64,000 bases of DNA, from contig NZ_CP073100.1 of NCBI RefSeq assembly GCF_018137965.1, forward strand, positions 3,855,754 to 3,919,753, in the 5' to 3' direction. Of the stretch, positions 3,641-14,948 are shown one piece after another. Made by a program: the position numbers and the translations under genes. This DNA comes from Luteolibacter ambystomatis (GTDB taxonomy: Bacteria; Verrucomicrobiota; Verrucomicrobiia; Verrucomicrobiales; Akkermansiaceae). How positions within the stretch are numbered: position 1 is the stretch's first letter; each line of letters opens with the position of its first letter. A model generated the notes under the pieces. It worked only from the letters and a program-made list of their open reading frames with translations. It was not told the DNA's origin and did not search any database.

Positions 3641-4501
3641 TCATGCCTTCGGAGCCTCTCCGAAGAGATCCCGCCGCCGATCTTTCAGGGGCGTAACCGT
3701 ACCCTCCCCCCGCGAGCGGCGCAGGGCATCCAGATCGAGATCCGCGATGAGCAGTTGTTCGACGGCGGGTTCCGCCTCGGCGGCGATACCGTCGTTTGGA
3801 AACGCGAGATCCACCGGTGTGAAGGCTCCGCTGCGGGCGTAGTGGAGATTTGCGGCAGGCACACGGGTCAAGGTGCCGACACAACCGGCGGTGACCACGT
3901 CGATCTGGTTTTCCACCGCGCGGGCCATCGCGCAGCGGGTGACCCGAAGATGGCCGCGGCGGTCATCGGTGCAGTACGGCACTACTAGTAGTTCAATGCC
4001 GCGGTCCGCGAGCACGCGCGTCGGCTCCGGGAACTCGATGTCATAGCAGATCTGCACGCCGAACTTCACGATGCCGGTGTCCACGACCACGAGATCATCC
4101 CCGCCGCTGACATCCCACGCATGGCGCTCCCACGGCGTGATATGAAGCTTCGGCTGCTCCATGAGCTGGCCTTCCGGCCCATGAATGAAAGCAATATTGA
4201 ACAAGTGCCCGTCCCGTACCACCGGCTGCGATCCTGCGACGATCCACACACCATGCTGGCGGGCGAGCCGTGTCATCTCGTCATTCACCCCGCCGGTCAT
4301 TTCCGCCAAGGCGCGGATCGAATCCATCGCCCGCCGACGTGGACCCAGTGAGAGCAACGGCAGCGTGAAATATTCCGGAAAAACCACCAGATGCGCGCCA
4401 TAATCCGTCACCGCGGTTTCCACGAAAAACGCGGCGCGTTCGAAGAAGGCTTCGGTGGAAGCGGGACGCTGCATGTCCCACTGGATGGAGGCGGTGCGCA
4501 T
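3641..4501 (-). CDS. Carbon-nitrogen hydrolase (nitrilase-superfamily amidase)
   Basis: Predicted cytoplasmic C-N hydrolase acting on an amide or carbamoyl bond; the substrate is unknown. With the ATG at 4501 it has 286 residues and the superfamily triad: E43 in VFPEYF, K118 in QPKLHIT and C152 in QICYDIEFPE. The aromatic HAWDVSGGDD region after the lysine and the cysteine context resemble the group that includes bacterial N-acyltransferase-associated amidases. The frame is open to an ATG at 4603, but that 34-residue extension is not family-like and would overlap the start of the divergent antiporter gene. Confidence 0.85.
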   Translation of the reverse strand: MRTASIQWDMQRPASTEAFFERAAFFVETAVTDYGAHLVVFPEYFTLPLLSLGPRRRAMDSIRALAEMTGGVNDEMTRLARQHGVWIVAGSQPVVRDGHLFNIAFIHGPEGQLMEQPKLHITPWERHAWDVSGGDDLVVVDTGIVKFGVQICYDIEFPEPTRVLADRGIELLVVPYCTDDRRGHLRVTRCAMARAVENQIDVVTAGCVGTLTRVPAANLHYARSGAFTPVDLAFPNDGIAAEAEPAVEQLLIADLDLDALRRSRGEGTVTPLKDRRRDLFGEAPKA

Positions 4502-4594
4502 GAACAGGCCCACTGATCGGGTGAAAAATCCGCCATGCCAGCAAATTTTTCCGGGACGTAGTCCCTGATCCGGGTATCCTCCAATGGCTTTTTC

Positions 4595-6325
4595 ATGAAT
4601 CACCTCGACCTGATCCTCACTCTAACAGGCGGCCTCGCCGCCGCGCTGGCGCTCGGCCTCGGCTCCCAGAAGCTGGGGCTGTCACCGATCGTGGGCTACC
4701 TGGTCGCGGGTATTCTGGTCAGCCCGAATACCCCGGGCTTCGCCGCGAACAAGGATCTGGCGAAGGAGATGGCGGAGATCGGCGTGATCCTGCTGATGTT
4801 CGGAGTGGGCCTGCACTTCCACTTCAAGGAACTGCTGGCGGTGAAACGGATCGCGGTCCCCGGGGCCATCGTTCAGAGCGCGGTGGCCACGGTGCTGAGC
4901 ATGGTGGTGATGCACTATTTCTTCGGCTGGAGCTGGACGCAGGGCGCGGTGTTCGGAATGGCGATCGCGGTGGCCAGCACGGTGGTGCTCACGCGCGTGC
5001 TGGTGGACAATCACGACCTGCACAAACCGATCGGCCACATCGCGATCGGCTGGCTGGTGGTGGAGGATCTGTTCACCGTCTTCGTACTGGTGTTGATCCC
5101 TGCCGTGTTCGGCGGTGAGAGCGCCGGCGGCGGCGCGCTGGCACTGGCGATCGGTTGGACCGCGCTGAAAATCGTGCTACTGGTGGCCTTCACCTTCGTG
5201 GTCGGCGGCTGGGCGATTCCGCGGTTGCTGACGGTGATCGCGCGCACGGGTTCACGGGAATTGTTTACGCTGGCGGTACTGGTGATCGCGCTGGGCATCG
5301 CGGTGGGTGCGGCGAAGTTGTTCGGCGTCTCGATGGAGCTGGGCGCCTTCCTCGCAGGCATGGTGGTGGCACGCTCGGAATTCAGCACCCGCGCCGCGAC
5401 CGATGCGCTGCCGATGAAGGATGCCTTCGGCGTGCTGTTCTTCGTCTCGGTGGGCATGCTGTTCGACCTGAAGAGCCTGCTCGAAACACCGTGGCTGGCG
5501 GTGGCGACCGTGGGCATCATCCTCATCGGCAAGCCGCTGGCGGCCATCGCCATCGCCCTGATCCTGCGCTATCCGCTGAAGACCTCGCTCGCGGTGGGCG
5601 CGGTGCTTTCGCAGATCGGCGAGTTCTCGTTCATCGTCGGCACCATCGGCAAGCAATACGGACTGCTCGATGACAAGGCCTTCAATGTGCTGGTCGCCTC
5701 CGCGATCATCACCATCACGGTGGCTCCGCTGATCTACCGTTGCGCCGGACCGCTGGAACGCCGCTTGTCAAAGATGCCGGGATTCCGCGCCTTGGCCGCA
5801 CGCGCGGTGGAAACCACGGACAATCTGCCCGCCGATTCTGACGACAACCGCCGCGCCGTGATTGTCGGCTACGGGCCGGTCGGCAAGACCGTGACCCGCC
5901 TGCTGCGGGAGAACGGCTTCACCCCGGTCATCGTCGAAATGAACGTCGATACCGTGCGGACATTGCGGAGCAAAGGCATCGCCGCCGTGTATGGGGATGC
6001 CAGCCATCCGGAAACCCTGATGACCGCGGGTGCGGACAAGGCCGACATTTTCATCCTCAGCGCCTCCAGCGTGGAAATGGGCAGCGAGGCGATCCAGCAG
6101 GCGAAAAAGCTGAATCCGAAAGTGCGCGTGCTGGCCCGCACCGCCTATCTCCGCGAAGCGGACGAACTGCTCAACGAAGGCTCGGACGCGGTATTTTCCG
6201 GAGAGGGCGAGGTGGCTCTGTCGATGACCGAGAACATCCTCGAATACTTCGGCGCGACCGACGAACAGATCGACCGCGAGCGCGACCGCATCCGCCGCGA
6301 TTTGTTCGCGCAGGTGGAGGCGTGA
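4595..6325 (+). CDS. Kef-type monovalent cation:proton antiporter (CPA2) with TrkA-N domain
   Basis: 576-residue inner-membrane protein. Residues 1 to about 385 form about 12 hydrophobic helices of the Na+/H+ exchanger fold, beginning with the typical 'GLAAALALGLGSQKLGLSP' entry. Residues about 420-540 are a cytosolic RCK/TrkA-N domain with the nucleotide-binding turn VGYGPVG followed by VIVEMN and VYGDAS. This architecture matches KefB/KefC and YbaL/RosB-like K+ efflux systems; the exact ion and ligand cannot be decided from sequence. It is a single gene with no KefF/KefG-like ancillary oxidoreductase beside it. The convergent acetyltransferase begins one base after the stop codon. Confidence 0.88.
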   Translation: MNHLDLILTLTGGLAAALALGLGSQKLGLSPIVGYLVAGILVSPNTPGFAANKDLAKEMAEIGVILLMFGVGLHFHFKELLAVKRIAVPGAIVQSAVATVLSMVVMHYFFGWSWTQGAVFGMAIAVASTVVLTRVLVDNHDLHKPIGHIAIGWLVVEDLFTVFVLVLIPAVFGGESAGGGALALAIGWTALKIVLLVAFTFVVGGWAIPRLLTVIARTGSRELFTLAVLVIALGIAVGAAKLFGVSMELGAFLAGMVVARSEFSTRAATDALPMKDAFGVLFFVSVGMLFDLKSLLETPWLAVATVGIILIGKPLAAIAIALILRYPLKTSLAVGAVLSQIGEFSFIVGTIGKQYGLLDDKAFNVLVASAIITITVAPLIYRCAGPLERRLSKMPGFRALAARAVETTDNLPADSDDNRRAVIVGYGPVGKTVTRLLRENGFTPVIVEMNVDTVRTLRSKGIAAVYGDASHPETLMTAGADKADIFILSASSVEMGSEAIQQAKKLNPKVRVLARTAYLREADELLNEGSDAVFSGEGEVALSMTENILEYFGATDEQIDRERDRIRRDLFAQVEA

Positions 6326-6913
6326 TCAATCACTCCCGTGATCCCCGCCGATCTCGTCCGGCCGGATCTCCCTCAGCACCCGGCAGGGATTTCCGACCGC
6401 CACGACATTCGCGGGAATGCTCTTCGTCACCACGCTGCCCGCGCCAATCACGGTATTGTCTCCGATGCTCACACCGGGATTGAGGATCGCACCGCCACCG
6501 ATCCAGACCCGGTTTCCGATGGTCACCGGCAGGGCGAACTCGACGTCCTGCGCCCGGGTGACCGGATCGATGGGATGGCCTGCGGTGTAAATGCTGACAT
6601 TCGGGCCGATCAGCACTTGGTCGCCGATCGTGACACGGTTGCAATCCAGGATCACCAGGTTGTAGTTCGCGTAGCTGCCCTCGCCCCAGTGGATGTTGTA
6701 GCCGTAGTCGCAGCGGAACGGCGGTTCGATGTAGAATTTCCCGCCCGCGGAGCCGAAGAGGCCGCGGAGCAGGGCATGGCGTTCCACGACCTTGGAAGGT
6801 TCCAGCCGGTTGAATTCGAACACCACTTCCTTGGCGTGCTGGCGCTCGCCCGCCAATTCCTCGCCAAAGGAGAAGTAGGGTTCCCCGCGCAGCATCTTTT
6901 CCTTCTCGGTCAT
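6326..6913 (-). CDS. Maltose/galactoside O-acetyltransferase family (hexapeptide repeat)
   Basis: 195-residue left-handed beta-helix acetyltransferase that moves acetyl from acetyl-CoA to a sugar hydroxyl, as in Maa/LacA/NodL. The N-terminus MTEKEKMLRGEPYF is the Mac domain; the hexapeptide repeats run from about residue 85 (ILDCNRVTIGDQVLIGPNVS). H113 in YTAGHP is the expected catalytic histidine, and the end VAVGNPCRVLREI is typical. The ATG at 6913 is chosen on homology. An in-frame ATG at 6940 is possible and has a purine-rich GGCGGAG just upstream. Sugar specificity cannot be inferred. Confidence 0.88.
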   Translation of the reverse strand: MTEKEKMLRGEPYFSFGEELAGERQHAKEVVFEFNRLEPSKVVERHALLRGLFGSAGGKFYIEPPFRCDYGYNIHWGEGSYANYNLVILDCNRVTIGDQVLIGPNVSIYTAGHPIDPVTRAQDVEFALPVTIGNRVWIGGGAILNPGVSIGDNTVIGAGSVVTKSIPANVVAVGNPCRVLREIRPDEIGGDHGSD

Positions 6914-7053
6914 GGCCGTGAAGATGCCCGGGAAGTCCATCTCCGCCACGGAAAATACACCCGTTCCTTTGGGGGAACTGCATGGGAAAGCCGCGCAGAT
7001 AGTTGCATGCGCAAATCTCTTTCCAAGCTGCCCGCACATGGTAGCCTTTTGCC

Positions 7054-8004
7054 ATGTCGAAACGAATCGCCCTCGCTCTGGGCTCCCTCGCCATGATGGC
7101 TCTTCCGACGCTTGCCGCCGATGCCGTGAAGAAAAAGATCCTCTTTTTCTCCAAATCGAGCGGATGGGAACACGATGTGATCTCGTACAAAAACGGCCAG
7201 CCCAGCTTCGCCGAAAAGCAGCTTCTGGAATTGGGCGAGAAGAACGGTTGGGAGTTCACCTTCTCCAAGGACGGCTCGAAGTTCGGCAAGGACTACCTCA
7301 ACCAGTTCGACGCGGTGTTTTTCTACACCACCGGCGACCTCCTCACTCCCGGCACCGACAAGCAGCCGCCGATGACCGCCGAGGGCAAGCAGGCGCTCTT
7401 CGACTACGTCCGCGCGGGCCACGGCTTCATCGGCACCCACTCCGCCACCGATACCTTCCACACCGACAACGAAAGCAAGAAGGGCCCGGAGCGTTTCACG
7501 AACCACGGTGACAAGGCGGACCCCTATGTTCACTTCATCGGCGCGGAGTTCATCATCCACGGCGCGCAGCAGGTCGCGAAGGTGACCGTGACCGATCCGA
7601 AGTTCCCGGGCCTCGCCGATGTGCCGAAGGACTTCAGCTTTCAGGAGGAATGGTATTCCCTGAAGGACTTCAACTCCGACATCCACGTGCTGTCCGTGCT
7701 CGATTCCCCTTCGATGAAAGGCGATCCCTACAAGCGTCCGCCATTCCCGAACACCTGGGCGCGCATGGAAGGCAAGGGCCGCGTCTGGTACACCGCGCTG
7801 GGCCACCGCGAGGACGTGTGGACCAATCCGATCTTCAAGACAATGCTGACCGGCGGCATCAAGTGGGCGCTCGGCGAAGTGAAGGCGGACATCCCGCCGA
7901 ACCTCAAGCAGACCGCCCCGGGCGCGATGACCAATCCGCCCTACGTGGCCCCGAAACCGGCCGCCGAGCCAAAGCCCGCCACCGCAGGCACCCCGGCCCA
8001 GTAA
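7054..8004 (+). CDS. Secreted ThuA-like domain protein
   Basis: 316 residues. A signal peptide (MSKRIALALGSLAMMALPTLAADA) precedes a ThuA-like, glutamine-amidotransferase-like fold: KKKILFFSKSSGWEH, DAVFFYTTGDLL, GHGFIGTHSATDTFH, and a late WYTALGHREDVW. ThuA domains are named for trehalose utilisation and are common in Verrucomicrobiota and Planctomycetota, fused to or near sugar-active enzymes. The classical GATase cysteine is absent, so the function is probably ligand binding or an unknown reaction. The C-terminus is a short Pro/Ala-rich tail. The gene stands alone and ends at a strong terminator. Confidence 0.82.
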   Translation: MSKRIALALGSLAMMALPTLAADAVKKKILFFSKSSGWEHDVISYKNGQPSFAEKQLLELGEKNGWEFTFSKDGSKFGKDYLNQFDAVFFYTTGDLLTPGTDKQPPMTAEGKQALFDYVRAGHGFIGTHSATDTFHTDNESKKGPERFTNHGDKADPYVHFIGAEFIIHGAQQVAKVTVTDPKFPGLADVPKDFSFQEEWYSLKDFNSDIHVLSVLDSPSMKGDPYKRPPFPNTWARMEGKGRVWYTALGHREDVWTNPIFKTMLTGGIKWALGEVKADIPPNLKQTAPGAMTNPPYVAPKPAAEPKPATAGTPAQ

Positions 8005-8022
8005 GCCAGCCGGGATTTTCCC

Positions 8023-8057
8023 AAGGGGCACCTTCCAGCGGAGGGTGCCCCTTTTTT
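8023..8057 (+). terminator. Rho-independent terminator after the ThuA gene
   Basis: A perfect 10-bp stem (AAGGGGCACC at 8023-8032 with GGTGCCCCTT at 8044-8053), an 11-base loop and a T run to 8057. It separates the ThuA gene from the type VII-like operon downstream. Confidence 0.9.
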
Positions 8058-8187
8058 GACCCATCCACGGGGCAAGCGGTGGCGGTTCGCGATTTGTAAG
8101 GAGTTTGTCAAAACTCACAATCGAACTGGAAAGGAAGCAGCGGATTGCCTTGAATGTTGGAAAGGTGCCCGGAAGGCATCCACTGCC

Positions 8188-8460
8188 ATGTCACAAGCCA
8201 TCATCGACCCCGAGGAGGTCCGCCGTTTTGCCGCGGAACTGAAGCGCTTCAACGGAGACCTGCGGGAGCGTTCGTCCTCGCTGATGGCCCGTTTCACGGC
8301 GCTTGGGGAGACCTGGCAGGATCAGGAGCAGGAGAAGTTTGCCGGGGAGTTCACCCAGCTCATGAAAACGCTGAAGGCGTTCCTCGAGTTGTCCGAGCGC
8401 CACACACCCTACCTGCTGAAAAAGGCCGAGCGCATCCAGCAATACCTCGACCAGCGCTGA
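8188..8460 (+). CDS. WXG100-like small helical protein (first gene of type VII-like locus)
   Basis: 90 residues with no cysteine, predicted as two long helices around a turn: the size and shape of a WXG100/ESAT-6 protein, the substrate or structural class of type VII secretion. The turn carries W43-Q-D45 instead of W-x-G, followed at fixed spacing by F51 (W-x-D-x5-F), and the same pattern recurs in the protein at 9018-9230. The ATG at 8188 gives MSQAIIDPEEVRRFA, a usual WXG100-like beginning; an open frame extends upstream to 8056 but looks non-coding. It is followed by three co-directional genes ending in an FtsK/EssC-like ATPase. The family call rests on size, fold and context. Confidence 0.72.
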   Translation: MSQAIIDPEEVRRFAAELKRFNGDLRERSSSLMARFTALGETWQDQEQEKFAGEFTQLMKTLKAFLELSERHTPYLLKKAERIQQYLDQR

Positions 8461-8487
8461 GCCGGGCAGGTTTCCCTCCCTCCCGCC

Positions 8488-9021
8488 ATGTCCGACCAGA
8501 CACGGATTTCCTCGATCGAGGCCTTGGAGAGCTTCCGGGGCGACCTCATCCGCTACATCAACCAGGCGCGCTCGGCGCTGGAGGAGATGGTGGGCGACGT
8601 GCGCCGCACCCGAACCTGGCTGGATACCGACCGTATCCAGCATTGGGGCATGCAGGTGAAGCGCCACACCAAGAAGCTGGAGCAGGCGGAGCAGGAGCTC
8701 TACAGCGCCACTCTCACCGACCCGAAGGGCAGCCACGCCCTTCAGAAAATGAACGTGATGAAATGCAAGCGGCTGGTGGAGGAAGCGGAGGCACGGCTCC
8801 GCGTCATCCAGCAGTGGCGGAAGCAGTTCGACAACCGCGCGGAACCCCTCGTCCGCCAGCTCGACCGGATGTTCGGCCTGCTGGGACAACAATTGCCGCG
8901 CGGGGTCGTATCATTGGGTGAAACCATCAAGGCGCTCCAGGCCTATGCCGAGACCAAGCGACCGCTGAAGCCTTCCGATTCCGCCACCGAAACCCCGACC
9001 GATCCTTCCTCCCCGTCATGA
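8488..9021 (+). CDS. Coiled-coil protein of the type VII-like locus, unknown function
   Basis: 177 residues without signal peptide or membrane segment. Nearly the whole chain is charged and helical (for example VKRHTKKLEQAEQELYSA and CKRLVEEAEARLRVIQQWRK), with a Ser/Thr/Pro-rich tail after about residue 155. It starts 27 bases after the first WXG-like gene and its stop overlaps the next start by 4 bases (ATGA at 9018-9021), so it is very likely co-translated with the second WXG-like protein. In this position it could be a chaperone, a secreted partner or a structural subunit. I recognise no named family. Confidence 0.7.
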   Translation: MSDQTRISSIEALESFRGDLIRYINQARSALEEMVGDVRRTRTWLDTDRIQHWGMQVKRHTKKLEQAEQELYSATLTDPKGSHALQKMNVMKCKRLVEEAEARLRVIQQWRKQFDNRAEPLVRQLDRMFGLLGQQLPRGVVSLGETIKALQAYAETKRPLKPSDSATETPTDPSSPS

Positions 9022-9230
9022 GCGTCTCCAACAGCAAAGGCCTCCTCACCGGCGCCACCAGCCAGCTCCAGGCACAATGGCTGGAAGTCCGTGCCTCCTG
9101 GCGCGACCGCAAGGCCCAGGAATTCGAGCAGGATTATCTCTCGGATCTGGAATCCAGCGTACGCGCCACCGTAAAAGTCATCGAGGATATCGAACGCCTT
9201 CTCCAACAAGTCCATGCCGACTGCGAATGA
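9018..9230 (+). CDS. Second WXG100-like small protein
   Basis: 70 residues, helical and charged. Residues W28-R-D30-x5-F36 match the W43-x-D45-x5-F51 of the protein at 8188-8460 in both spacing and residue type, which suggests the two are paralogues, possibly forming a heterodimer like EsxA/EsxB. It lacks about 20 residues compared with typical WXG100 proteins and has a single C-terminal cysteine (HADCE). Its start overlaps the previous stop in an ATGA, and its end overlaps the ATPase gene by 17 bases, so translation of all three is probably coupled. Confidence 0.7.
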   Translation: MSVSNSKGLLTGATSQLQAQWLEVRASWRDRKAQEFEQDYLSDLESSVRATVKVIEDIERLLQQVHADCE

Positions 9231-12200
9231 CCCCATCGACCCCGGCGAGGTGCTGGGCCGGCTCTCCCGACTGAAGGACGGCGTCACCCACACCGTCGCG
9301 CGCGAACAGGAATTGATGAAATCCCGCGAGGAGCAGCGGGTGCGGGTGATCCGCCAGATTTCCGCACGCGAAAACACGGACTCACAGACCCTCAACGGGC
9401 AGGTGGAGGAATTGCGGAAGGAGCACAAGCACGCGCTCGAACTCCAGCAGGCGATCTACGAGGCACGTCGTATCAAGATCCAGAATGCCTACCACGGCAG
9501 CCGTACTTCGCTGTCCGGACGCATGCAGCTCGTGAAGGACCAGAAGGTCCGCTCCACGCACGGAGCCATGGTCGCGGACAGGCAGCGCCGCCAGAAGGAG
9601 GTGGCCGCCGCCGGGGAAAAGCACGAGGCATTCAAGAATCTGCTGGCTGGCGATCTGCAGGTGCGCGAGGAGGCGAAAATTTCGCTGAAGAAGGCGCTAC
9701 GTTCCTTCGCTCCGCTGCTGCTGCGGAATACCGATATCCATGACAAGGCCGCCGTGAAAGCCGCAGCGGTGGGGACCGCGGAGGAAGTGCGCGCCGCCCT
9801 CCAGGCCGATGTGGAGGAAGCCCGCGCAGCCGCCGAGGCCGCGCATCGCCTGCCGCTGGCGAAGTTGTTCCGCTTCGTACCATGGATCGCCCTGGCCGTG
9901 ATAGCGGCGGGCGTCCACTACTGGCTTTCCCGTTCCGGCACGCCGCTGATGCCGGGACTGGCCATCACGGAAGGGATCCTCGCCGCCGTGTGGCTGCTGG
10001 CACTCGGCCTTTCCTGGTCCACGGGCAGCCGCGGCGCGAAAGCACTGCAATCCGCCCTTATCAACGCGCAGGCGGCACGGGCCTTGTCCGGTGCCCGCGT
10101 GGCGGAACTCAAGGCCGAGGTCGAACAACAGGAGCACGACCAGAACTCACGGATCAGCGAGGTCTTCGGCGAAGCCGACACCGAACTCCGCAAGCTGACG
10201 GCGGAGGAAATGAAGAAGCTCGACCAGAAACACGCGCGCCTGCCTGCGAAGCTCGACAAGCTCCACCAGCGCAATCTGGCGAATCTCAATCGCCGCCATG
10301 AAGCCGCGCTCGGCATGTCCCACTCGGACTCCGCCGAAGTGGCTCTCCAGCGATCCCATGAACGCGATGACGCGATGGCGGTGATCGAATCCGCGATCAA
10401 CCAAACTCTCGGCGAACTGGAGCAGCCATGGGTGGCGGAGATGGTTCCACTGAAGGAACAACTCGATGCCCTCGAAGGTCCGGCTGATGCCCGCTATCCG
10501 GATTGGACACACGACCTTTGTGAAAGCTGGGAGCCGCCTATGGAAACTCCGGCCGCGATCCGCATCGGTCGCATCGCCGTGGATCTGAACAACCTGCCCG
10601 ACGGCATCCCTAAAACCCAGCGGCTCGCTCTTCCCGGCCCTCCGAAGTTCCAGGTGCCGCTGGCGCTCGGCTTCCCCCAGCACGGCTCGCTGATGATCGA
10701 GACCAACGGCGACCCCGCCGCCGCGATCGATGCGATCAATGGCATCGCGCTCCGCCTGCTGGCGAGCCTGCCGCCGGGCCGCTCGTCCTTCGTCTTCATT
10801 GATCCCGTGGGACTCGGTCGCGGCTTCGCCGGGCTGATGCACCTTTCCGACTATGAGGAAACCCTGATCACCCACCGCATCTGGACCCAGACCACCCAGA
10901 TCGAGGAGCGCCTCGCCGAACTCTGCGAGCACATCGAAAAGGTGATCCAGATGTATCTCCGCAACGAGTACGCCACCATCGCCGACTACAACGAGCAGGC
11001 GGGCAGCGTGGCCGAGAAGTATCGCTTCCTGGTGATCGCCGGACTCCCGACCGCCTTCAGCGAAACGGCGGCGAAGCGGCTGCGTTCCATCGCCGCCAGC
11101 GGCGCGCGCTGCGGTGTCCATCTGCTGATCCAGTGCGACCGCAGCCAGCCGATCGAATCCTCACTCGATGAAGAACTGAAACGCGCCTGCCTGCGGGTCA
11201 CGTTGGAGCGCGGCAAATTCCGCCTGAGTGATACCTCCTATGGCACCGGCGAGGTCACCTTCGACACGCCGCCATCCGATGACGATGCCAGCACGCTGAT
11301 CCACCGCATCGGCCAAGCAAGCATCGACTCGAACCGCGTGCAGGTGCCGTTCTCCCAGATCACTCCGCCGGTGGAAGAACGCTGGACCCACGACACCTCC
11401 GAGGAACTGCGCGTGCCGGTCGGGCGCGCGGGCGCGAAGAAGCTTCAGATGCTCGCCATTGGCAAGGGCACCCGCCAGCACGTGCTGGTGGCGGGCAAAA
11501 CCGGTTCCGGCAAATCCACGCTCTTCCACGTCATCATCACCAACCTCGCGCTGTGGTGCGGCCCGGAGCAGGTGGAGTTCTATCTGGTCGACTTCAAGAA
11601 GGGCGTCGAATTCAAGTGCTACGGCACCAAGCGCCTGCCGCATGCGAAGGTGGTGGCGATCGAGAGCGACCGCGAGTTTGCGCTGAGCGTGCTCCAGCAG
11701 GTCGATCACGAGTTGAAGCGCCGCGGCGAACTCTTCCGCAAGGCGGGCTCACAGGATCTCGCCTCCTACAACCGTCACGGCTCGCCCCTGCCCCGCACGC
11801 TGCTGTTGATCGACGAGTTCCAGGAGTTTTTCACCGAAGACGATGCGGTGGCGCAGGAAGCCTCGCTGCTTCTCGACCGCATCGTCCGCCAGGGCCGCGC
11901 CTTCGGCATCCACGTGCTGCTCGGATCGCAGACACTCGGCGGCGCCTACACGCTGGCACGCGCCACGCTCGGCCAGATGGTCATCCGCATCGCGCTCCAG
12001 TGCAATGAAGCGGACGCGCACCTCATCATGGACGAGGACAATCCGGCCCCGCGCCTGCTGACCCGTCCCGGCGAAGGCATCTACAATGACCAGGCCGGTG
12101 CTTTGGCCGCGAACAGCCCGTTCCAGATCGTGTGGCTGTCCGAGCAGGAACGCGACAAGCTGCTGGATGAAGTGGCGGCACTCGGTCGCAAGCACGCCGA

Positions 12201-13074
12201 ATTCCCGGCGGCTCCGATCGTCTTCGAAGGCAACGCTCCGGCGGAAATCCGCGACAACGCCGAACTCGCCGCCGCACTGCGCACCCGGCCGACCACCCGC
12301 CCCGCCGCGGGCCGAGCCTGGCTGGGGGCACCGAACTCGATCAAGGGTCCGACCGAAGCGCGCTTCCAGCGCCAGAGCGGCAGCCACCTGTTGGTCGTCG
12401 GCCAATCCGGCGAGCGAACGTTCTCGCTGCTGCTGGTTTCGATCCTCTCGCTGGCCTCCCAATATCCGGCAGGCCAGGCGGAGTTCTTCATCCTTGATCC
12501 GAATGCCGCGGCTTTGCCGGGCGAGGAATCGTTCCAGCGCCTCACCGCCATGCTGCCGCACAAGGTGCGGATCGGTGGCCCGGCGGAAGCGGCCGTATTG
12601 ATGACCGAACTCAATGCGACCCTCGAAAGCCGCGCTGCCGGCACTCCTGCGGATTCTCCGGAGATCTTCCTGATCGTCCGTGACCTGCAACGCTTCAAAG
12701 CGCTGCGCCCCGAGGATGACTTCCGCTTCTCGATGGATGACGACGCCTCCGCCGCGAGTGCTTCGCAGATCCTCGCGAACGTTCTCAACGAAGGCGGCCC
12801 CGCTGGTATCCACGTGCTTGCCTCCACGGACACCTGGAACAACGTCAGCCGCTGGATTCCGCGCAAGCTGATGGCGGAGTTCGAAATGCGCGTGCTGTTC
12901 CAGATGAGTGCGAACGACTCCGCCAACCTCATCGACGGCCCTGCCGCATCCGGCCTCGGCCTGCACCGTGCGCTCTTCCACAACGAGCACCTCGGCAGCG
13001 ACGAAACCTTCCGCCCTTACGCGCTGCCGGACGACGAGTGGCTGGAGGAAACCAAAGCCCGTCTCCAAAACTGA
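9214..13074 (+). CDS. FtsK/SpoIIIE-family ATPase, EssC/EccC-like (type VII-like secretion motor)
   Basis: 1286 residues. Residues about 25-215 are coiled coil, with two transmembrane helices at about 221-238 and 248-268 and a second coiled coil at about 270-440. Three FtsK-like modules follow. D1 (about 490-690; GSLMIETNGD, FVFIDPVGLG) lacks a P-loop. D2 (about 735-960) is intact, with Walker A GKTGSGKST at 761-769 and Walker B LLLIDEF at 863-869. D3 (about 1040-1280) has a degenerate P-loop, GQSGERTFS (1063-1071), with no lysine. A membrane-tethered chain of three ATPase modules is the EssC/EccC plan. There is no FHA domain and no gamma DNA-binding domain, so a DNA translocase role is unlikely. 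The upstream neighbours encode WXG-like proteins. Confidence 0.85.
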   Translation: MPTANDPIDPGEVLGRLSRLKDGVTHTVAREQELMKSREEQRVRVIRQISARENTDSQTLNGQVEELRKEHKHALELQQAIYEARRIKIQNAYHGSRTSLSGRMQLVKDQKVRSTHGAMVADRQRRQKEVAAAGEKHEAFKNLLAGDLQVREEAKISLKKALRSFAPLLLRNTDIHDKAAVKAAAVGTAEEVRAALQADVEEARAAAEAAHRLPLAKLFRFVPWIALAVIAAGVHYWLSRSGTPLMPGLAITEGILAAVWLLALGLSWSTGSRGAKALQSALINAQAARALSGARVAELKAEVEQQEHDQNSRISEVFGEADTELRKLTAEEMKKLDQKHARLPAKLDKLHQRNLANLNRRHEAALGMSHSDSAEVALQRSHERDDAMAVIESAINQTLGELEQPWVAEMVPLKEQLDALEGPADARYPDWTHDLCESWEPPMETPAAIRIGRIAVDLNNLPDGIPKTQRLALPGPPKFQVPLALGFPQHGSLMIETNGDPAAAIDAINGIALRLLASLPPGRSSFVFIDPVGLGRGFAGLMHLSDYEETLITHRIWTQTTQIEERLAELCEHIEKVIQMYLRNEYATIADYNEQAGSVAEKYRFLVIAGLPTAFSETAAKRLRSIAASGARCGVHLLIQCDRSQPIESSLDEELKRACLRVTLERGKFRLSDTSYGTGEVTFDTPPSDDDASTLIHRIGQASIDSNRVQVPFSQITPPVEERWTHDTSEELRVPVGRAGAKKLQMLAIGKGTRQHVLVAGKTGSGKSTLFHVIITNLALWCGPEQVEFYLVDFKKGVEFKCYGTKRLPHAKVVAIESDREFALSVLQQVDHELKRRGELFRKAGSQDLASYNRHGSPLPRTLLLIDEFQEFFTEDDAVAQEASLLLDRIVRQGRAFGIHVLLGSQTLGGAYTLARATLGQMVIRIALQCNEADAHLIMDEDNPAPRLLTRPGEGIYNDQAGALAANSPFQIVWLSEQERDKLLDEVAALGRKHAEFPAAPIVFEGNAPAEIRDNAELAAALRTRPTTRPAAGRAWLGAPNSIKGPTEARFQRQSGSHLLVVGQSGERTFSLLLVSILSLASQYPAGQAEFFILDPNAAALPGEESFQRLTAMLPHKVRIGGPAEAAVLMTELNATLESRAAGTPADSPEIFLIVRDLQRFKALRPEDDFRFSMDDDASAASASQILANVLNEGGPAGIHVLASTDTWNNVSRWIPRKLMAEFEMRVLFQMSANDSANLIDGPAASGLGLHRALFHNEHLGSDETFRPYALPDDEWLEETKARLQN

Positions 13075-13076
13075 AA

Positions 13077-13105
13077 CAGCGCGGGGATCATCCCCGCGCT
13101 GCTTT
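13077..13105. terminator. Stem-loop after the type VII-like operon
   Basis: A perfect 11-bp stem (CAGCGCGGGGA at 13077-13087 with TCCCCGCGCTG at 13091-13101) and a 3-base loop begin three bases after the ATPase stop codon. The following CTTTG gives only a weak T tract on the plus strand. The convergent lipoprotein gene ends at 13128, so the hairpin may serve both directions. Confidence 0.7.
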
Positions 13106-13127
13106 GAAAAACGAATCAAGACCGGAC

Positions 13128-13841
13128 TCAGCGGCCGCCGGGCTTCACACCCGTCTTGGCATCCAGCGCCCGGATCGCCGAAATCGTGAGGTTCTGCACC
13201 GCCTCGTCAAACGCCTGCGAAGTCGCCTTCGGATTGGAGGCGAAATGGGTCAGCGGATAGGTGTGGGAACCCGCATCGCCCACCACCTGGGTATCGAGCA
13301 GTTTTTCACCGGCGGCGGTTACCTTGAGATTCCCGGTGATCACCGGGCGCACCAGCACCTCGCCATCGGCTTTGCCGGAGCGGACATAACGGTAGTGTTC
13401 GATGGACAGGCTGACATAGTTGGGAGAAGACGACTGGATCTTGCCGCGGAAGAAGGGTTGCTGGGCGAGGTTCGTGGCGAAGGCGGTTTGGGCGCGCTTG
13501 CCGAGGTCGGTAGGTAGGTTTTGCGGTGCCTTGGCGATGGCATCGGCATATTTGCTTTCGAACATCTTCTGTTGGATCGCCTCGGCGATCTCGCTCCCGA
13601 GCGCGAGGATCGCTCCCACCGCGGCCCCCTGTCCAAAGCTGCCATTCCCCACCTGGCCGTAGTAGTGGACCTGAACATCCTGCGCACCCAGCGGAGACTG
13701 ATACGCATCCTTCGCCACCTGCACCTGGGTGACCGCCACCGTGGAAAGTTTCGCCTTCTGGGATTCGGTCCACTGGGCGCACGAAGAAAGCACCAGTGAA
13801 GCAACCGCCACACATGCCAAAGTCAAATTACGATATGTCAT
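13128..13841 (-). CDS. Predicted lipoprotein, unknown function
   Basis: 237 residues with a lipoprotein signal peptide ending in the lipobox LSSC (C21), so it is probably anchored in the outer or inner membrane. The body has a Gly-rich hydrophobic stretch (GSFGQGAAVGAILALGSEI, about 70-88), then a beta-rich region with a KVTAAGEKLLDTQVVG segment. I do not recognise the family. It is convergent with the type VII-like operon, and a hairpin lies between them, so it is probably not part of that operon. Confidence 0.75.
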   Translation of the reverse strand: MTYRNLTLACVAVASLVLSSCAQWTESQKAKLSTVAVTQVQVAKDAYQSPLGAQDVQVHYYGQVGNGSFGQGAAVGAILALGSEIAEAIQQKMFESKYADAIAKAPQNLPTDLGKRAQTAFATNLAQQPFFRGKIQSSSPNYVSLSIEHYRYVRSGKADGEVLVRPVITGNLKVTAAGEKLLDTQVVGDAGSHTYPLTHFASNPKATSQAFDEAVQNLTISAIRALDAKTGVKPGGR

Positions 13842-13997
13842 CGCGGCGGGTTATGCCCGAAAACCCGCGCCCGTCAATTCCCAGCTGGGATGACGAGCGT
13901 GGCAGGAAGGACACACGGAACGGAATGAACGTGGAGATATGGGGCGCAGCCACGATTTCGGCACAAACCTGTAACACTCGCCCCCGCGGCTTTTCAA

Positions 13998-14012
13998 AGT
14001 CGCGGAGCGACT
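13998..14012. repeat. Short palindrome (REP-like)
   Basis: AGTCGC-GGA-GCGACT, a 6-bp palindrome with a 3-base loop, lies in the 207-base gap between the lipoprotein start and the stop of the SH3-like gene. An offset palindrome, CCGCG...CGCGG (about 13984-14006), overlaps it. The gap is otherwise featureless apart from probable promoter DNA for the lipoprotein gene. Confidence 0.4.
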
Positions 14013-14048
14013 GGAAGAGTCGGAGGTCATCGGTGCCGACTGCCGGGC

Positions 14049-14813
14049 TCACCACCCGAACACCACCGGCGGCACGATGAGACGCACATCCCCGGCGCCG
14101 CGGCGGTTGTTCTCGCTTTCCTCGATCGCGGAAACGAAGCCATTGTCGAACTCGACGGAGGTCTTCCCCTTCTCAATCCGCGTCACGCTGACGAGCTGGC
14201 GGAAAAGATTTCCCGTATAGGGGTCACGGACGAGGGCGTAGTTTTTCTGATCCTCGTAGTCGATGTACTCCCACCGCCCGCTCTCACCCTTGCCGGTCTT
14301 TCGGACATCGGTTCTGGTGGGCTTGCCGAGCGAAGCGGCGACTTCGGACACCGTCATGCCCACGGCGACCTGGTGGTTCGCGACCAAGCGTTGGACCACG
14401 ATCTGACGGCTGTAGAGCTTCTTGAGATTCTCGACGAAATTCGGGTCTTTCGAGGAGAATGCCCACGGCGGCACCCATCCGACGAGATCGTCACGGGTCC
14501 CCTTGCCGCGGACATAATAAGCGCGCTCCGTCATGGCCTCCAGCTTCACCGTCTGATCGGCGCGGATAAATCCCACCCGGTGGTTGCCTTCCTTGTCCGA
14601 GAAAACAGGCGCTTCCTTGATGATCGTCAGTTCGACCGGGCGCTTCGCGGGATCGTTGAAATAAACGACCCCCGGTTCCATCTCCAGTTTCGACTGGCGG
14701 TCTCGCTCATTGCGCTTGATGCCGCTGAAGCGCCCGCTTTGGGCGAATGCCGGAGCCGCCACCAGCAGGCAGAAGCAAAAAACGGCGGGGAGACGGAAAG
14801 CCATGGGTTTCAT
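14049..14813 (-). CDS. Secreted protein with SH3-like domain, unknown function
   Basis: 254 residues with a signal peptide (MKPMAFRLPAVFCFCLLVAAPAFAQS). Residues about 55-125 look like a bacterial SH3 fold (LTIIKEAPVFSDKEGNHRVGFI ... YYVRGKGTRDDLVGWVPPWAF), the kind used for peptide or wall binding. A second region (about 150-225) has MTVSEVAASLGKPTRT, reminiscent of the SmpA/OmlA-type 'V-x-x-LGxP' turn. The ATG at 14813 is chosen because the signal peptide begins there; an upstream open frame is only the antisense of hemL. It is divergent from hemL. Confidence 0.75.
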   Translation of the reverse strand: MKPMAFRLPAVFCFCLLVAAPAFAQSGRFSGIKRNERDRQSKLEMEPGVVYFNDPAKRPVELTIIKEAPVFSDKEGNHRVGFIRADQTVKLEAMTERAYYVRGKGTRDDLVGWVPPWAFSSKDPNFVENLKKLYSRQIVVQRLVANHQVAVGMTVSEVAASLGKPTRTDVRKTGKGESGRWEYIDYEDQKNYALVRDPYTGNLFRQLVSVTRIEKGKTSVEFDNGFVSAIEESENNRRGAGDVRLIVPPVVFGW

Positions 14814-14948
14814 GATGTTGGCACCATAGGCGAGGGCGGTGAAAAGCCCAAGCTGGATTCTTGGGACGGATGCTGGGCGGGCTCCATTCATCGAAATTTC
14901 ATCCACCTTGGGATTGGACGCGGCAGGTCCGGCGGGCATCCTTCCGGC

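What the first reader, a model, noticed from the sequence alone, without database searches (positions are those of the whole stretch)
8188..13074. Minimal type VII-like secretion locus outside the classical phyla
Four co-directional genes with spacings of 27 bases or overlaps encode two WXG100-like small proteins, a coiled-coil protein and a membrane-tethered three-module FtsK-type ATPase. No EccB/D/E, EsaA, EssB, mycosin or EsaB homologue is visible here. A core of ATPase plus small helical proteins with one extra coiled-coil gene would be an unusually reduced system. The genus-level identity is uncertain, but the locus does not read as DNA translocation since the gamma domain is missing.
Basis: partly seen in the sequence, partly recalled or inferred. 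Interest (0 to 1): 0.75.

Follow-up and report, generated by a model that had tools for sequence, protein, structure and literature searches.

The report
Stand-alone four-gene type VII-like secretion cassette
Four linked genes encode a membrane ATPase related to the motor of type VII secretion plus three small helical proteins, a compact set that recurs in two phyla of Gram-negative bacteria without several of the usual partner proteins and whose cargo is unknown.

Summary
In detail: window 8188-13074 encodes P1 (90 aa, WXG100 above Pfam's cut-off), P2 (177 aa, predicted long helical hairpin), P3 (70 aa, WXG100 below cut-off) and a 1286-aa ATPase with two hydrophobic segments and three FtsK-like modules, only the middle one with a Walker A. 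By curated profiles and Foldseek the ATPase is nearer EccC/EssC than FtsK. The order P1-P2-P3-ATPase is kept in 13 of 15 cassette genomes of the phylum and in 47 of 57 testable named loci, mostly Planctomycetota and Verrucomicrobiota; no flanking gene is shared widely. YukD/EsaB, EssB and EsaA give nothing above cut-off in the 15 genomes; EccB could not be judged. Two T7SS motifs fail: W-x-G is W-x-D throughout, and YxxxD/E is missing from P1 and P3. The kind is not new: a 2012 table footnote and a 2024 paper describe WXG100 proteins with a three-module ATPase active only in the middle. Added here: a self-contained four-gene form with membrane segments, a very conserved P1, and P2 relatives with different C-terminal domains. 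Best reading: a reduced T7SS-like inner-membrane translocase; secretion is unproven.

The parts
8023..8053 (+). hairpin running into a T tract: probable terminator of the upstream ThuA-family gene, in front of the operon
   Evidence: fold -27 kcal/mol, z -5.0 against shuffles; the simple scan, with its loop limit of 8, did not list it
8188..8460 (+). P1, WXG100-type protein, 90 aa
   Evidence: PF06013 40.4 bits, cut-off 27.3; profile of 13 relatives hits HP0062 and EsxB structures
8314..8322 (+). P1 W-x-D motif at the place of W-x-G
   Evidence: W-x-D in 66 of 66 aligned P1 sequences
8488..9021 (+). P2, predicted long two-helix hairpin with a low-confidence tail, 177 aa
   Evidence: model pLDDT 86.5, helices 2-77 and 84-156; found in 14 of 288 genomes
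9018..9230 (+). P3, second WXG100-like protein, 70 aa, C-terminal Asp-Cys-Glu
   Evidence: PF06013 17.9 bits, below cut-off; W-x-D in 72 of 72; Cys in the last six residues in 50 of 59 named loci
9214..13074 (+). ATPase, 1286 aa: N-terminal coiled-coil-like region, two hydrophobic segments, three FtsK/EccC-like modules
   Evidence: PF01580 121.9 bits; EccCb 118, EccCa 113, EssC 89, FtsK 30.5 bits
9850..9906 (+). hydrophobic segment 1 (residues 213-231)
   Evidence: hydropathy scan
9955..10011 (+). hydrophobic segment 2 (residues 248-266)
   Evidence: hydropathy scan
10606..11328 (+). module 1, no Walker A (residues 465-705; limits set by me)
   Evidence: alignment A4, model
11371..12168 (+). 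module 2, the only one with Walker A and B (residues 720-985; limits set by me)
11494..11517 (+). Walker A GKTGSGKS (residues 761-768)
   Evidence: invariant in all 14 rows of A4
12226..13038 (+). module 3, no Walker A (residues 1005-1275; limits set by me)
   Evidence: alignment A4, model
13077..13101 (+). G+C-rich hairpin just after the ATPase stop, without a T run
   Evidence: fold about -23 kcal/mol, z -6.6

Best explanation
A self-contained, reduced type VII-like translocase of diderm bacteria. The ATPase is anchored in the inner membrane by two helices and probably forms a ring with its single catalytic module (module 2); modules 1 and 3 are non-catalytic. P1, perhaps paired with P3, is the small helical client or adaptor recognised by the ring, and P2 is a long helical hairpin that acts as cargo carrier or adaptor, since relatives of P2 bear different C-terminal domains. 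ATP hydrolysis in module 2 would push or remodel the P1/P3/P2 complex at or across the inner membrane. Shown here: gene content, recurring order, co-occurrence, relationship of the ATPase, the single Walker A, the hydrophobic segments, the Imm33-like domain on some P2. Inferred: that the segments span the membrane, the ring, P1-P3 pairing, recognition, direction of transport, and that anything leaves the cytoplasm.
For: Nearest curated ATPase families are EccC/EssC, and so are the first Foldseek hits (EccC 4nh0 E 5.7e-34, EssC, then FtsK at 2.5e-12); FtsK rows stand apart in the tree. P1 is WXG100 above cut-off and its profile finds solved WXG100-type proteins. P1 in 16 and ATPase in 17 of the same 288 genomes, no P1 without ATPase at these limits. 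Order kept in 13 of 15 cassette genomes and in 47 of 57 named loci. P1 is nearly as conserved (mean identity 63.8% over 13 genomes) as module 2 (70.8%), far above P2 31.7%, P3 33.8% and the N-terminal region 17.3%. Two hydrophobic segments in 14 of 14 such ATPases of the phylum set, and in 54 of 68 named ones. P2 of L061 ends in an Imm33-like domain (54.2 bits, cut-off 27).
Against: 0 of 66 P1 and 0 of 72 P3 have YxxxD/E in the last 25 residues of the aligned part, and none has W-x-G. No known T7SS membrane partner was found among those that could be tested, so no known channel, and nothing for the outer membrane was sought. Only one WXG100 protein above cut-off in 14 of 15 cassette genomes, so no substrate repertoire of that family. 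P3's own profile finds no WXG100 structure. VIA-align ranks single FtsK and TcpA domains (Z about 24) slightly above EccC domain pairs (Z 22.6), and the tree does not show EccC to be nearer than FtsK. Of 68 named ATPases, 10 show one hydrophobic segment, 3 none and 1 three. 10 of 57 named loci lack part or all of P1-P3 beside the ATPase. Close relatives sit in Ter/CoCoNuT-type operons, with ATPases without such segments (L036, L037).
Confidence: 0.5

Rival explanations
1. It is not a secretion system: a membrane-tethered stress or defence complex that stays inside the cell, in which the ring ATPase senses or remodels P1/P3/P2, as a stand-alone relative of the Ter/CoCoNuT-linked WXG100-ATPase modules.
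For: Relatives lie with vWA, PP2C-like and kinase genes and a coiled coil with a nuclease-like end (L036; the names of these genes are my reading, Pfam listed nothing for the coiled-coil protein), and beside TerD genes on a Rhodococcus plasmid; the CoCoNuT paper describes such operons. No YxxxD/E in P1 or P3, no known partner found. The ATPase matches defence proteins SspH (89 bits) and mad8 (75 bits), SspH as well as EssC.
Against: The vWA, PP2C-like, kinase and nuclease-like proteins of L036 and TerD of L139 have no blastp match (E 1e-3) in the 13 cassette loci or in the 80 named loci. The window's own neighbours are of ordinary metabolic and transport families in the 7 of 9 that Pfam names. 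PADLOC gives nothing for P1 and P3 and only weak coiled-coil-type matches for P2 (18.6 bits). The hydrophobic segments set it apart from L036 and L037.
Confidence: 0.3
2. A DNA translocase or conjugative coupling ATPase with helical accessory proteins.
For: PF01580 domain; single-domain structural Z to FtsK and TcpA about 24, slightly above EccC; a phage FtsK/SpoIIIE-like family scores 161 bits with the middle part.
Against: EccC/EssC profiles score 89-118 bits against 30.5 for FtsK; no gamma domain listed; the genome has another gene that scores 222 bits with the FtsK family; FtsK rows form a separate, starred group; a WXG100 protein is present in 15 of 15 cassette genomes.
Confidence: 0.08
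3. A relic or selfish mobile cassette without a cellular function.
For: Patchy: 15 of 288 genomes of the phylum carry the cassette type, and one of the four listed members of the window's genus lacks the ATPase; the 2012 footnote calls such sets mobile versions of T7SS.
Against: Strong conservation of P1 and module 2, open frames in the 13 cassettes; no flanking gene is shared by more than 3 of 13 loci, so no common mobility gene shows.
Confidence: 0.07

Closest known systems
Solo WXG domains with a distinct YueA-like ATPase, only the middle of three FtsK/HerA domains active (Zhang et al. 2012, PMC3482391, Table 1 footnote; passages seen)
   Same: Phyla named include verrucomicrobia and planctomycetes; WXG protein; three modules, middle one active
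   Different: The passages seen give no gene order, no P2 or P3 and no membrane segments; 'solo' WXG there, two WXG100-like proteins here
EssC-like ATPase/WXG100 extension of type III-A CoCoNuTs with TerY-P (PMC11090510, passages seen)
   Same: N-terminal coiled coil, only the central module active, two WXG100-type proteins, a coiled-coil protein
   Different: Here two hydrophobic segments, no TerY-P-like genes beside it, P2 without nuclease end, both small proteins W-x-D (the paper reports WxG in one of its two)
HP0062 of Helicobacter pylori (PDB 3FX7; review PMC3397514, passages seen)
   Same: Best-scoring solved relative of P1; the review gives WRD in the bend and a gene cluster with an FtsK/SpoIIIE-domain protein
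   Different: Reported as a homodimer; its neighbours were not examined here
T7SSa/T7SSb (EccC, EssC)
   Same: Motor family and WXG100 partner
   Different: YukD, EssB and EsaA not found, one Walker A module, no W-x-G, no YxxxD/E in P1 or P3

Membership tests
Type VII secretion system (ESX/Ess) | EccC/EssC-type motor as nearest curated family | tested here: met
   Best NCBIfam families EccCb/EccCa/EssC, Foldseek top EccC/EssC; VIA-align ranks FtsK domains slightly higher
Type VII secretion system (ESX/Ess) | Curated equivalog score for EccC or EssC | tested here: not met
   118, 113.3 and 89.1 bits against cut-offs 346.55, 509.15 and 778.4
Type VII secretion system (ESX/Ess) | WXG100 protein above Pfam cut-off | tested here: met
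   P1 40.4 bits against 27.3; P3 17.9 is below. Below the NCBIfam cut-off for WXG100_ESAT6 (30.2 against 44.85)
Type VII secretion system (ESX/Ess) | W-x-G motif in the bend | tested here: not met
   W-x-D in 66 of 66 P1 and 72 of 72 P3
Type VII secretion system (ESX/Ess) | C-terminal YxxxD/E export signal | tested here: not met
   0 of 66 P1, 0 of 72 P3, 5 of 70 P2 in the last 25 residues of the aligned part (tails beyond the aligned part not included)
Type VII secretion system (ESX/Ess) | YukD/EsaB, EssB or EsaA in the genome | tested here: not met
   None above cut-off in 15 genomes; weak matches below cut-off: YukD in 1 (19.6 bits, cut-off 27), EssB in 2 (18.3 and 16.8, cut-off 27.4). One control genome passed the cut-off in each search, B. 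subtilis being among those that rang
Type VII secretion system (ESX/Ess) | EccB in the genome | tested here: inconclusive
   0 of 15, but no control genome rang
Type VII secretion system (ESX/Ess) | EccE, EssA, mycosin | not tested
   No search made
Type VII secretion system (ESX/Ess) | Secretion of the WXG100 proteins | not testable with these tools
   Needs cells
Three-module YueA-like ATPase with WXG domain, only middle module active (Zhang 2012 footnote) | Walker A in the middle module alone | tested here: met
   Window and 13 relatives; exactly one Walker A pattern in 79 of 80 named ATPases (some are partial, and the loci were found partly by that middle motif)
CoCoNuT/TerY-P WXG100-ATPase extension | TerY-P-like genes and coiled-coil nuclease beside the ATPase | tested here: not met
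   No blastp match of the L036 proteins in 13 cassette loci or 80 named loci (one set of queries, so distant forms could be missed)
CoCoNuT/TerY-P WXG100-ATPase extension | ATPase without membrane segments | tested here: not met
   Two segments in 14 of 14 of the phylum set; named set 54 of 68 two, 10 one, 3 none, 1 three; none in L036 and L037
FtsK/SpoIIIE DNA translocase | Gamma DNA-reading domain | tested here: not met
   Not listed up to E 10
FtsK/SpoIIIE DNA translocase | Groups with FtsK in a tree | tested here: not met
   FtsK rows form a starred group without the cassette (root unknown, several EccC rows long)

The most novel reading that the evidence does not exclude
A distinct stand-alone protein exporter of the Planctomycetota-Verrucomicrobiota lineages: one membrane ATPase ring with one catalytic module, W-x-D dimers instead of W-x-G ones with a different recognition tail (YLxQR in P1, Asp-Cys-Glu in P3), and P2 as a modular payload carrier whose C-terminal domain is swapped between lineages. 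It would be a type VII-like system that works in diderms with an outer membrane without the known partner proteins.
Probability: 0.3. Interest if true: 0.75.

Novelty: new variant of a known kind. Interest (0 to 1): 0.5.

Why it matters
If it exports protein, four genes would be a smaller set than any type VII system I know of (recall, not searched), and in diderm bacteria, so the question of what the other T7SS components are for could be tested directly. If it does not export, it would show that WXG100 proteins and EccC-type motors have an intracellular use.

Tried and rejected
FtsK or conjugation ATPase: disfavoured, although VIA-align gives single FtsK and TcpA domains a slightly higher Z than EccC. 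Matching of the three modules to EccC D1-D2-D3 or to the DUF plus D1 plus D2 was not settled: by sequence module 2 scores best with D1 (73.8 against 47.7 bits in 4nh0), but the whole model aligns end to end with 4nh0 419-1315. A fold for P2: Foldseek gives long helical hairpins of unrelated proteins, none at E 0.001 or below, so no homology is claimed. PHROGs: a phage FtsK/SpoIIIE-like family scores 161 bits with residues 726-996, more bits than any EccC model gives; not followed. In the tree the EccC D3 row has a very long branch on the cassette side, and the split between the cassette side and the EccC/FtsK side is weak (70/80), so the tree is used only to say that FtsK rows are apart. Prevalence in Planctomycetota was not measured. 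Literature: the 2012 Ter paper (Anantharaman) is not held, so it is cited only as quoted in PMC11090510. Searches for print on this stand-alone form; they cover open-licence papers only.

Limits of the counts: the 288-genome set and the 80 named loci overlap (L048 and L028 appear to be the same contig by its length), so counts are not independent. Of the 80, 12 had a partial or split ATPase and 11 too little upstream DNA, leaving 57. P1, P2 and P3 rows are those found by the profiles at E 0.01 (53, 57 and 59 named loci) plus the 13 of the phylum set. E-values of the Rhodococcus proteins are for a small set of proteins, not for a database.

Full report
Observation. A strong hairpin running into a T tract lies at 8023-8053, behind the upstream ThuA-family gene, and a G+C-rich hairpin follows the ATPase at 13077-13101, so the four read as one operon (inference). 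The only sigma-70-like match lies inside the ATPase gene and is no more than chance. The genome is one contig of 5.32 Mb and the window is C1:3855754-3919753. Of nine neighbouring genes scanned, seven belong to ordinary families (amidohydrolase, carbon-nitrogen hydrolase, Na/H exchanger, acetyltransferase, ThuA, class-III aminotransferase, short-chain dehydrogenase) and two have none.

Protein by protein. P1 is a WXG100 protein by Pfam (40.4 bits, cut-off 27.3) and P3 only weakly (17.9); both are below the NCBIfam cut-off (30.2 and 19.2 against 44.85). A profile of 13 P1 relatives finds HP0062 of Helicobacter (E 2e-10) and EsxB (E 4e-8) among solved structures; the P3 profile finds no such structure. 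P2 has no family above cut-off and is predicted as one long helical hairpin, helices 2-77 and 84-156, with a low-confidence tail. The ATPase has a coiled-coil-like N-terminus (my reading), two hydrophobic segments, and three FtsK-like modules; the middle one alone has Walker A.

What the ATPase is related to. NCBIfam scores are 118 (EccCb), 113 (EccCa), 89 (EssC) and 30.5 (FtsK), all far below the curated cut-offs. The model of residues 427-1286 (pLDDT 81) finds EccC and EssC first by Foldseek E-value; VIA-align gives single FtsK domains Z about 24 and EccC/EssC domain pairs Z about 22. A phage FtsK/SpoIIIE-like family gives 161 bits and the defence protein SspH 89 bits with the middle part. 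In a tree of 30 module sequences the 15 cassette rows join (93/94), then the Rhodococcus row (99/96), while FtsK rows stand apart (100/99); whether EccC D1 or FtsK is the nearer outside group is not resolved. The genome's other gene of the FtsK_SpoIIIE family is elsewhere and scores 222 bits.

Distribution and gene order. The ATPase is in 17 of 288 sampled genomes of the phylum, P1 in 16, all among those 17, P2 in 14. Fifteen of the 17 hold the cassette type: 13 with P1-P2-P3-ATPase in order, one split over two contig ends (G004) and one with the P1-P2-P3 trio on another contig than the ATPase (G086, whose P2 one search had missed). In one of the 13 (L027) the spacings are loose (271, 45 and 589 nt). 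Among 80 named loci, 49 are labelled Planctomycetota, 27 Verrucomicrobiota, 1 Bacteroidota, 3 without phylum; 57 have a full-length ATPase and at least 2 kb upstream, and 47 of these have the order: 26 Planctomycetota, 19 Verrucomicrobiota, 1 Bacteroidota, 1 without phylum. The 10 exceptions: two lack P1, one keeps only P3, seven show none of the three. Flanks: among 13 cassette loci one gene family is shared by 3, two by 2, and six by the same-genus pair L034/L035; in the named set the largest cluster spans 7 of 80 loci at varied places.

Partners. In 15 cassette genomes one WXG100 protein passes the cut-off in 14, two in G211, whose second comes from a Ter-type locus (L036). YukD, EssB and EsaA give nothing above cut-off in 15 of 15; there are weak matches below it for YukD in one genome and EssB in two; one control genome passed the cut-off in each of the three searches. 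EccB gave nothing, but no control rang. P2 has no second copy in the window's genome at E 0.01.

Motifs. All 66 aligned P1 and all 72 aligned P3 have W-x-D and none W-x-G; none has YxxxD/E in the last 25 residues of the aligned part. P1 ends in QR in 45 of 53 named loci and P3 has a Cys among its last six residues in 50 of 59. HP0062 also has WRD and an FtsK/SpoIIIE neighbour according to a review (PMC3397514, passages seen), so W-x-D may mark this branch; the CoCoNuT paper, however, reports WxG for one of its two proteins. Mean pairwise identity over 13 genomes is 63.8% for P1, 70.8% for module 2, 48.3% for module 1, 42.4% for module 3, 33.8% for P3, 31.7% for P2 and 17-18% for the N-terminal, membrane and stalk regions: P1 changes almost as slowly as the catalytic module, which suggests contact with it (inference).

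Membrane segments. Two hydrophobic segments are found in all 13 cassette ATPases of the phylum set and in that of G086; in the named set, of 68 ATPases of at least 1150 aa, 54 show two, 10 one, 3 none and 1 three at the threshold used. The Ter-type ATPases L036 and L037 show none.

P2 as carrier. In some Phycisphaerales and other Planctomycetota P2 is longer; L061 carries an Imm33-like domain (54.2 bits, cut-off 27), L088 scores 25.3 bits, just below, and L094 nothing. In L036 the corresponding coiled coil is followed by a nuclease-like end (my reading of the sequence; Pfam names nothing there), shared with L037 and described for such operons in PMC11090510. On a Rhodococcus plasmid the order is ATPase, a P2-like coiled coil with an extra C-terminal part, a P3-like and a P1-like protein, near TerD genes; there P1 (E 5e-14) and P2 (E 1e-8) match in a small set of proteins, P3 only weakly (E 1e-3), and the P1-like protein is below the Pfam cut-off (17.5 bits).

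Prior knowledge. A footnote to Table 1 of Zhang et al. [quoted passage not shown] PMC11090510 (2024, passages seen) describes such ATPases with N-terminal coiled coils, without transmembrane parts, with two WXG100 proteins in CoCoNuT operons, and quotes Anantharaman 2012 for stand-alone versions. PMC3935865 (passages seen) found WXG100 proteins almost only in two phyla, with a few in Chloroflexi; PMC11217815 (passages seen) describes T7SS subtypes in Actinomycetota and Bacillota. I found no description of the four-gene stand-alone form in the searches listed under Tried and rejected.

Verdict. A real, conserved, stand-alone variant of a known but little-studied kind. It works, most likely, like a type VII motor with small helical clients, but by the tested features it cannot be filed as a T7SS.

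Noticed in passing
L036 (G211), about 4166-14845: The same genome that has a cassette also has a Ter/CoCoNuT-type relative: vWA, WXG100, coiled coil with a nuclease-like end, ATPase without hydrophobic segment, second vWA, PP2C-like and kinase genes (names of the neighbours are my reading of the sequences).
   Followed up: partly
L038 (G051), 6200-10268 in the flipped locus: A small genome of the window's family has a variant with two WXG100-like proteins (both W-x-D by reading), a separate 316-aa protein with several hydrophobic segments and a shorter ATPase of 836 aa, as if the membrane part were a gene of its own.
   Followed up: partly
L139, 8489-13919 (Rhodococcus sp. AH-ZY2 plasmid): Actinobacterial relative on a plasmid typed as conjugative, near TerD genes, with P1-, P2- and weakly P3-like proteins in changed order.
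   Followed up: partly
L061 3744-4805, L088 1581-2600: P2 with an Imm33-like domain (L061 above, L088 just below Pfam's cut-off); what it does there is unknown.
   Followed up: partly
window 9219-9227 and P3 of 59 named loci: P3 ends in Asp-Cys-Glu or similar in most loci; a nearly constant Cys at the tail might bind metal or form a disulfide.
   Followed up: no
L149 (G086 contig 193), 1767-2798: The P1-P2-P3 trio lies apart from its ATPase, so the trio can be inherited as a block; the seven named loci without a trio may be the same case.
   Followed up: partly
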